Source: a virus. From it: a DNA stretch of 33,161 bases. The DNA is taken from positions 1-33,161 of IMG/VR virus record IMGVR_UViG_3300025889_012374, one strand, 5' to 3'. The first letter of the stretch is position 1. Each line of letters begins with the position of its first letter. The position numbers were made by a program, and so were the translations under genes. Shown here piece after piece: positions 145-1,166 of the stretch. Under the pieces are notes generated by a model that was not told where the DNA came from, ran no database searches, and saw only the letters and a program-made list of their open reading frames with translations.

Positions 145-576
145 TTAGTGAGATTTGATTTCTATCTTTCTCGGACGCTGTTCTTCGGGCAGTTCTACTC
201 TGAGTTTGATCACAAGTAAACCGTTGACGAATTCAGCTCCATCAACGACAACGTGCTCGGCTAACCTAAAAGTCTCCACGAACTTTTTAGTTGTAATTCC
301 TTTATGAAGATAGGTCTTACCAACTTCTTCTTCAGGATTACCACGAATGATCAGAACACCTGGCTTTGCCTCGATCTCTAGATCTTTCTTCTTGTAACCA
401 CCAAGTGCAAATTCCATGGCATATTCTTCATCACTATACTTTACGATATTGTGACGAGGAAAACCCTTTTCGTTTGCGCCAACGGCAGTTAATTTTTCGA
501 TCTCATCCCAGACATGGTCGAAACCAATGAAACGAGAATGTGGAAATGAAAACACTTTCGTGCGTGTATTAACCAT
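145..576 (-). CDS. hsp20: Small heat shock protein Hsp20 (alpha-crystallin family)
   Basis: ATP-independent holdase chaperone that binds unfolding proteins in the cytoplasm. The 143 residues match the bacterial family length. An N-terminal arm (1-45) with FPHSRFIGFD is followed by an alpha-crystallin domain (about 46-128), including the AEFVNGLLVIKL signature (114-125), and a C-terminal tail with the I-x-I oligomerisation motif (IEI, 138-140). The start is fixed by a perfect AGGAGG six bases upstream. Hsp20 genes are common in T4-like marine cyanophages, where a role in virion protein folding is inferred. The gene has its own sigma70-type promoter and a structured leader that may be a temperature sensor. 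It is followed closely by a secreted-protein gene. Confidence 0.96.
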   Translation of the reverse strand: MVNTRTKVFSFPHSRFIGFDHVWDEIEKLTAVGANEKGFPRHNIVKYSDEEYAMEFALGGYKKKDLEIEAKPGVLIIRGNPEEEVGKTYLHKGITTKKFVETFRLAEHVVVDGAEFVNGLLVIKLRVELPEEQRPRKIEIKSH

Positions 577-581
577 AATTG

Positions 582-636
582 CCTCCTAATCTTTTAGCAA
601 GGTTGTTGTCTAACGCTCGGACCATTCCGCAGCGTC
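582..636 (-). promoter_or_regulatory. hsp20 5' UTR with ROSE-like RNA thermometer candidate
   Basis: The predicted leader of about 60 nt holds two structures. First, a 9-bp hairpin with one bulged G and an AUGG loop (635-613: ACGCU-g-CGGA / UCCG-AGCGU), starting almost at the expected transcript 5' end. Second, CCUUGCU (602-596) faces the Shine-Dalgarno AGGAGG (587-582) across an 8-nt A-rich loop. Pairing is C-G, C-G, U-A, U-G, G-G, bulged C, U-A. This reproduces the U(U/C)GCU anti-Shine-Dalgarno arrangement that defines ROSE thermometers upstream of bacterial hsp20 genes. An alternative UUGC/GCAA pairing (600-597 with 582-579) would also hide the ribosome site. The sequence and complementarity are seen; thermoregulation is inferred. 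Confidence 0.65.
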
Positions 637-643
637 GATACTA

Positions 644-672
644 TATATACACTTTTTCGTTTTAAAAGTCAA
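644..672 (-). promoter_or_regulatory. Sigma70-type promoter for hsp20
   Basis: On the minus strand, TTGACT (672-667) is followed after exactly 17 bases by TATATA (649-644). Transcription should start near 637, at the foot of the leader hairpin. The -35 box overlaps the stop codon of the upstream cupin-like gene. This would let hsp20 be transcribed by unmodified host RNA polymerase, independently of the long replication operon. Confidence 0.65.
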
Positions 673-1166
673 ACATATAAACTTGGATCTGGATTTCCTT
701 CTACACCAAAAGAAAAAGTGCATCTAGATTGTTTTGGTGATATGTGGTGTTCTGTTCCTCTAGGAATATAAACATATCTACCAGGAGTCAGGCACGTCTT
801 ATCACTAGCAACAGTTATATCAACCTCTCCCAAAACCTGTAATAAAAACACATCCATTCCATCCCTATGCAGAGGATAACTTTGTGTGTTTCTACCAACA
901 CCAATAAATGCTATATTCGTAATATTATTTTTATAGAATATAGTTTCCATTTCAGCAACAATTTGTTTTGCAAACTTTGGTGCTGAAGGTCTTTGGTGAA
1001 AAGAATTCAAACTGATTCTAAACTTATCGTGATTTCTATCGTACAGATTTTCAGGGTGCGTATCTAGAAGATAGATTAATTCTTTCCAAGAAAAATCATT
1101 AAGGAGCATTGATCCCCAAAAGTGTTTTTTCTCGGCAATGTTTTTTCTTTTTCGATCAAAGATCAT
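669..1166 (-). CDS. Cupin/JmjC-like (Cupin_4-type) protein, possible Fe(II)/2OG oxygenase
   Basis: 165 residues with a double-stranded beta-helix pattern in the C-terminal half. YPLHRDGMDVFLLQVLG (98-114) gives an HxD pair (H100, D102), and PGRYVYIPRGTEHHI (128-142) gives a third ligand (H140 or H141). The spacing and the FLLQVxG and PGxxxYIPxGxxH signatures resemble Cupin_4/JmjC hydroxylases such as the RoxA ribosomal oxygenases. A classic 2OG-binding Arg/Lys is not clearly identified, so it might be a non-catalytic cupin. The first 60 residues have no recognised domain. It begins at ATG 1166, just after the regA stop, without a clear Shine-Dalgarno, so translational coupling to regA is likely. 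Cupin fold is likely; substrate unknown. Confidence 0.7.
   Translation of the reverse strand: MIFDRKRKNIAEKKHFWGSMLLNDFSWKELIYLLDTHPENLYDRNHDKFRISLNSFHQRPSAPKFAKQIVAEMETIFYKNNITNIAFIGVGRNTQSYPLHRDGMDVFLLQVLGEVDITVASDKTCLTPGRYVYIPRGTEHHISPKQSRCTFSFGVEGNPDPSLYV

What the first reader, a model, noticed from the sequence alone, without database searches (positions are those of the whole stretch)
582..672. Phage-encoded ROSE-like RNA thermometer controlling hsp20
A complete regulatory unit is visible: TTGACT-17-TATATA promoter, a leader of about 60 nt beginning with a 9-bp hairpin, then CCUUGCU positioned opposite AGGAGG with the U-A, U-G, G-G, bulged C, U-A pattern of ROSE elements, and the hsp20 AUG five bases later. 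ROSE thermometers are known for bacterial hsp20 genes in alpha- and gammaproteobacteria. A version in a lytic phage would let it time chaperone production to host temperature or stress. The pairing includes a G-G mismatch and an 8-nt loop, so stability is uncertain.
Basis: partly seen in the sequence, partly recalled or inferred. Interest (0 to 1): 0.85.

Follow-up and report, generated by a model that had tools for sequence, protein, structure and literature searches.

The report
Phage heat-shock gene with RNA thermometer
The RNA leader of a small heat-shock gene in this T4-like phage folds into a conserved two-hairpin structure of the bacterial ROSE thermometer type that hides the ribosome-binding site, and nearly the same leader sits in front of hsp20 in almost every marine phage examined, so these viruses probably make the chaperone on demand when the cell warms or is stressed.

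Summary
The minus-strand leader 637-577 of hsp20 forms two hairpins; the second pairs CCUUGCU with the Shine-Dalgarno AGGAGG in the ROSE pattern. Rfam ROSE_3 matches it full length, but at 28.4 bits against a gathering score of 43. In 36 distinct leaders of related phages 11 of 17 base pairs show compensatory changes, three of them in the SD hairpin, while the G-G mismatch and bulged C never change. The element is not peculiar to this phage: 23 of 25 named phages with hsp20 (T4-like cyanophages, pelagiphages, methylophages) have UYGCU 16-26 nt before the start codon and a first hairpin. A model built from phage leaders gives a single hit, at hsp20, in 23 of 25 whole phage genomes, hits 158 of 158 further viral hsp20 loci, and also hits 41 of 60 genomes of the SAR11 family of HIMB114. 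The closest characterised relative is the short two-hairpin ROSE element of Pseudomonas ibpA. Temperature control itself is inferred, not shown. I found no published report of a ROSE element in a phage. Verdict: a genuine new member of a known kind in a new setting (viruses), widespread and testable.

The parts
667..672 (-). -35 element TTGACT
   Evidence: sequence; a TTGA-type -35 spaced 17 nt from TATAWA in 34 of 41 distinct leaders of the clade
644..649 (-). -10 element TATATA
   Evidence: sequence; conserved spacing and distance to the AUG
577..637 (-). inferred 5' leader of hsp20, about 61 nt (transcription start not mapped)
   Evidence: promoter position; Rfam ROSE_3 match 638-571; R3 match 644-568, E 1.2e-13 (clade relatives are in the training set)
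612..636 (-). hairpin I, 10 bp, bulged G630, loop AUGG
   Evidence: 8 of 10 pairs with double changes in 36 leaders; fold
582..602 (-). hairpin II, thermosensing: CCUUGCU against AGGAGG, G598-G586 mismatch, bulged C597, 4-nt loop
   Evidence: 3 pairs with double changes and one with U-G/C-G exchange; fold
596..600 (-). ROSE motif UUGCU
   Evidence: UUGCU or UCGCU in all 36 clade leaders
582..587 (-). Shine-Dalgarno AGGAGG, five bases before the AUG
   Evidence: sequence
145..576 (-). hsp20, 143 aa small heat shock protein
   Evidence: phrog_432, PF00011

Best explanation
The leader is a short two-hairpin ROSE-type RNA thermometer that controls translation of the phage hsp20. RNA polymerase starts at the TTGACT/TATATA promoter and makes a leader of about 61 nt. 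Hairpin I is a stable 5' cap and folding scaffold. Hairpin II pairs U(U/C)GCU imperfectly with the Shine-Dalgarno and blocks ribosomes at low temperature. Because its core holds a G-G mismatch, a bulge and a U-G pair, it opens gradually on warming and lets Hsp20 be made. Shown here: the structure, its conservation and its place before hsp20. Inferred: opening with temperature, translational control, and the benefit to the phage (chaperone supply during heat stress or heavy virion protein synthesis).
For: Rfam ROSE_3 full-length match. Covariation in the clade: 99.3% of cells paired, score 0.447 against 0.160 in shuffles, 0 of 500 as high. Across 30 diverse phage leaders 14 of 17 pairs with double changes, 0.460 against 0.137 (alignment fitted to the model). 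The SD-flanking pair exists as C-G, as G-C (S-RSM4 type) and as A-U (HTVC103P). Model R2 recovers 12 held-out named phages at E 8e-7 to 0.01. R3 gives a single hit, at hsp20, in 23 of 25 phage genomes and hits 158 of 158 further viral hsp20 loci. Hairpin II is -6.7 kcal/mol at 25 C against -6.5 for a Pseudomonas ibpA leader by the same calculation, and short Pseudomonas ibpA leaders are experimentally proven thermometers (PMC3669281). Predicted SD openness in the window rises from 0.17 at 15 C to 0.41 at 37 C.
Against: The score is below Rfam's gathering cut-off. Energy models do not single the leader out: some other leaders in the window also open with temperature, and some phage relatives (Melnitz, HTVC115P, MED4-213) are predicted to change little. 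No temperature experiment exists; the transcription start is inferred.
Confidence: 0.8

Rival explanations
1. The leader is chiefly a binding site for the phage Hsp20 (or another protein such as RegA), which represses translation until unfolded protein or another signal titrates it; temperature acts only indirectly.
For: E. coli IbpA represses its own translation by binding its 5'UTR, with R93 essential (PMC10474464); 23 of 25 named phage Hsp20s keep the Arg. Hairpin I with its bulged G and, in this clade, the linker UAGACAACAA are conserved without an obvious pairing reason. regA lies close upstream of hsp20 in several phages.
Against: All 78 clade proteins have Lys at the R93 position, and R93K is inactive in E. 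coli. Covariation in the stems points to shape rather than sequence recognition. No RegA site was tested.
Confidence: 0.1
2. A static SD-masking hairpin plus a 5' stabilising hairpin that only keep hsp20 translation low and the mRNA stable, without useful temperature response in the host's range.
For: Folding predicts only gradual opening, and some relatives hardly change. Pseudomonas hairpin I is thought to stabilise mRNA (PMC3669281).
Against: A static lock would not need the invariant G-G mismatch and bulged C; sequestering alone would allow plain complementarity. The match is to the ROSE pattern specifically, and only before hsp20.
Confidence: 0.08
3. Chance complementarity without function.
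For: The motif is short; folding z-score is only -2.1.
Against: Compensatory changes, 0 of 306 control leaders, near-universal conservation.
Confidence: 0.01

Closest known systems
Short ROSE-like RNA thermometer of Pseudomonas ibpA (Rfam ROSE_3, RF02523; Krajewski et al. 2013, PMC3669281)
   Same: 61-62 nt 5'UTR, two hairpins, U(U/C)GCU against the SD in hairpin II, controls a small heat shock gene; hairpin I with a bulged G and about equal hairpin II stability in the Pseudomonas leader compared here (L087)
   Different: phage genome; sigma-70-type or T4-late-type promoter instead of sigma-32; below the Rfam gathering score; no temperature data
ROSE elements of rhizobia and E. coli ibpA (Rfam RF00435, RF01832)
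   Same: U(U/C)GCU motif masking the SD of a small heat shock gene
   Different: those have three to four hairpins (PMC3669281); no match of either model to the window leader
hsp20 leaders of SAR11 and beta-proteobacteria found here
   Same: hit by the phage-built model R3 directly before hsp20; 41 of 60 genomes of the HIMB114 family have a hit
   Different: chromosomal; not characterised as far as I could find
Phage lambda cIII RNA thermometer
   Same: phage-encoded RNA that responds to temperature (PMC4166951)
   Different: two alternative conformations, shut by heat, acts on the lysis-lysogeny decision; not a ROSE hairpin before a chaperone gene
Synechocystis hsp17 thermometer
   Same: controls a small heat shock gene in a cyanobacterium; many of the phages here infect cyanobacteria
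   Different: a single short hairpin (PMC4166951)

Membership tests
ROSE-like RNA thermometers (class) | lies in the 5'UTR directly before a small heat shock gene | tested here: met
ROSE-like RNA thermometers (class) | U(U/C)GCU paired imperfectly with the SD in the 3'-proximal hairpin | tested here: met
   sequence and covariation; both U and C occur at the variable position
ROSE-like RNA thermometers (class) | non-canonical core (G opposite an SD G, bulged C) retained | tested here: met
   invariant in 36 clade leaders and kept across diverse phages
ROSE-like RNA thermometers (class) | two or more hairpins in about 60 to 100+ nt | tested here: met
   two hairpins in about 61 nt
ROSE-like RNA thermometers (class) | SD hairpin melts and translation rises with temperature | not testable with these tools
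   only predicted
Rfam ROSE_3 (RF02523) | score at or above the curated gathering score of 43 bits | tested here: not met
   28.4 bits, E 3e-4, full length; therefore not filed as ROSE_3 proper
Rfam ROSE (RF00435) and ROSE_2 (RF01832) | model match | tested here: not met
   no match up to E 10
IbpA-type self-repressed sHsp | Arg at the position of E. coli IbpA R93 | tested here: not met
   Lys in the window and in 78 of 78 clade proteins; Arg in 23 of 25 named phages

The most novel reading that the evidence does not exclude
ROSE-type RNA thermometers are a core regulatory feature of marine phages, present before nearly every phage hsp20 in unrelated phage groups and shared with host lineages such as SAR11, so that infection by T4-like cyanophages and pelagiphages is tuned to temperature at the level of translation; in the window's clade the thermometer was kept while the protein-based feedback of IbpA was lost.
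Probability: 0.5. Interest if true: 0.82.

Novelty: new member of a known kind. Interest (0 to 1): 0.72.

Why it matters
[quoted passage not shown] A conserved thermometer in front of it says that phages regulate this chaperone by temperature or folding stress, gives a directly testable link between water temperature and infection, and supplies a large natural set of leaders (hairpin II from -2.7 to -6.7 kcal/mol at 25 C) for studying how thermometers are tuned to host temperature.

Tried and rejected
Chance pairing: rejected by covariation and control leaders. A tRNA or another Rfam RNA: none. The literature search for the Rfam accession returned noise. A first promoter scan used a wrong -10 pattern and was redone. 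Whole-leader thermodynamic profiles do not discriminate hsp20 leaders well from other genes and are not used as main evidence. Rfam ROSE_3 on 18 related contigs gave no hit at E <= 0.001; that model looks tuned to Pseudomonas (69 bits on L087), so phage-built models were made instead. A scan for relatives of the jumbo-phage Hsp20 in viral contigs found none.

Full report
What is there. The window is a fragment of a T4-like phage (a virus record of 33,161 bases) with major head protein, clamp loader, a gp46-like recombination subunit, helicase and RegA genes. By major capsid protein the nearest named relative is phage C48C1, 63% identical. On the minus strand hsp20 (145-576; PF00011) is preceded by TTGACT-N17-TATATA, a leader of about 61 nt, AGGAGG and the AUG. 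The structure differs slightly from its description: hairpin I (636-612) has ten pairs and a bulged G630, and hairpin II (602-582) closes to a four-base loop.

More than chance. Rfam's ROSE_3 model matches 638-571 over its full length at 28.4 bits, E = 3e-4 against all families and 1.1e-5 for that family over the record. This is below the curated 43 bits, so by Rfam's own rule it is not a ROSE_3 member; ROSE and ROSE_2 did not match.

Relatives. A protein search gave 80 IMG/VR loci with Hsp20 82-99% identical. Their leaders, with the window, give 36 distinct sequences (alignment A1). On the two-hairpin structure 99.3% of cells pair, 11 of 17 pairs show changes on both sides, and the covariation score is 0.447 against 0.160 in shuffles (0 of 500 as high) and 0.035-0.102 with slid partners. 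In the SD hairpin C-G alternates with U-A at the base, U-A with A-U and A-U with U-A at the top, and U-G with C-G inside (the U/C of the ROSE motif); the G opposite the SD and the bulged C never change. A control on the same contigs found UYGCU before an AGGA ribosome site in 0 of 306 other ORF leaders. The promoter is kept as well: 34 of 41 distinct leaders have a TTGA-type -35 spaced 17 nt from TATAWA.

Wider distribution. tblastn finds Hsp20 in 505 phage records. The leaders of 25 named phages were read (regions, leaders). 23 have UYGCU 16-26 nt before the start codon with a complementary SD, and most have a first hairpin with a bulged G, typically GGAUGCCUUCGGGGUCC in cyanophages. The SD-flanking pair is C-G in most, G-C in S-RSM4 and S-CAM4, and A-U in HTVC103P. 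The two exceptions, DSL-LC02 and Pseudomonas jumbo phage 30-2, still have sequence complementary to the SD. All distinct leaders of S-RSM4-type loci carry the same arrangement (56 distinct, one of them read with a shifted start).

Models. R1 (clade) found Melnitz-3 and C48C1 at E about 3e-6 and 5e-6 and several cyanophages more weakly. R2, built from 16 leaders, recovered 12 held-out named phages at E from 8e-7 to 0.01, each directly before hsp20. R3, searched over 25 whole phage genomes (about 4.3 Mb), gave exactly one hit in 23 of them, each time overlapping the start of hsp20. Most of these were in its training set, but S-CAM4 was not (E = 6e-4). DSL-LC02 had none, and jumbo phage 30-2 had three weak hits, one of them at hsp20. 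R3 also hit 158 of 158 further viral loci fetched with the HTVC115P and Melnitz proteins, nearly all ending at the hsp20 start. In alignment A7, which was fitted to the model, 14 of 17 pairs have double changes.

Cellular relatives. In loci from bacterial genomes R3 finds the element before hsp20 in SAR11, Comamonadaceae, Burkholderiaceae and others. Of 60 genomes drawn from the family of HIMB114, 41 have a hit, all but one of them a single hit; for HIMB114 itself the hit is at hsp20. Phage and host thus share one RNA type; exchange with proteobacterial hosts is the simplest origin (inference; direction not tested).

How it works. Short ROSE elements of Pseudomonas ibpA are 61-62 nt long, have two hairpins, carry U(U/C)GCU against the SD and give about 3- to 8-fold induction from 25 to 42 C; hairpin II alone suffices and hairpin I stays closed (PMC3669281). 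By the same calculation the window's hairpin II (-6.7 kcal/mol at 25 C) equals that of a Pseudomonas ibpA leader (-6.5), while several marine phage hairpins are weaker, as would suit cooler hosts (inference). Predicted SD openness in the window rises steadily with temperature, but such profiles do not discriminate well. I infer a molecular-zipper thermometer; the physiological role, chaperone supply when the infected cell warms or is loaded with unfolded virion protein, is inference.

Feedback. E. coli IbpA also represses itself by binding its 5'UTR through R93, and R93K is inactive (PMC10474464). Aligned with E. coli IbpA, the window clade has Lys at this position in 78 of 78 proteins, whereas 23 of 25 named phages have Arg. 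This predicts thermosensing without IbpA-type feedback in the window's phage, and possibly both in most others.

Known or new. [quoted passage not shown] Full-text searches combining ROSE element, RNA thermometer, phage, hsp20, cyanophage and phage-encoded gave no report of a phage ROSE. The paper on cyanophage small heat shock proteins does not mention promoters, regulation or untranslated regions. The library holds only open-licence papers, so an earlier report cannot be excluded. I rate it a new member of a known kind, with unusual breadth.

Noticed in passing
window 603-611 (-): The linker AGACAACAA between the hairpins is almost invariant in 36 distinct leaders of the clade while the adjacent stem changes freely; not explained by pairing and not shared by other phages.
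   Followed up: partly
window 145-576 (-) and 78 clade Hsp20 proteins: The residue matching E. coli IbpA R93 (needed for self-repression) is Lys throughout this clade and in C48C1 and jumbo phage 30-2, but Arg in the other 23 named phages.
   Followed up: partly
L434 1155-1209, L438 1155-1209, L440 1169-1223: A second, weaker R3 hit (E about 0.04) lies a few hundred bases downstream of hsp20; possibly a second thermometer-controlled gene.
   Followed up: no
G022 (Rhodobacteraceae Water_Bin34: L311, L312, L347) and G021 (Sphingobacteriales SW22112_bin_1: L310, L319): These bins hold several phage-like hsp20 leaders (7 and 2 R3 hits), one or more after a TATAAATA-like element; probably phage contigs binned with bacteria.
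   Followed up: no
L087 (OQ572409.1, 'Pseudomonas phage Y7', marked UNVERIFIED): The stretch looks like Pseudomonas chromosomal ibpA with a full ROSE_3 (69 bits); possibly host DNA in a phage record.
   Followed up: partly
L083, L084, L210, L216, L221, L018, L047 leaders: Here a T4-late-type TATAAATA lies just before hairpin I, where most of the window clade and pelagiphages HTVC103P/115P have a sigma-70-type promoter: same thermometer, probably different transcription timing.
   Followed up: partly
window 669-1166 (-): The gene between regA and hsp20 matches JmjC_2 and cupin domains, possibly a 2-oxoglutarate-dependent oxygenase; its stop codon overlaps the hsp20 -35 element.
   Followed up: no
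LC727697.1 136796-136865 and 82073-82128: Two weak R3 hits away from hsp20 in Pseudomonas jumbo phage 30-2.
   Followed up: no
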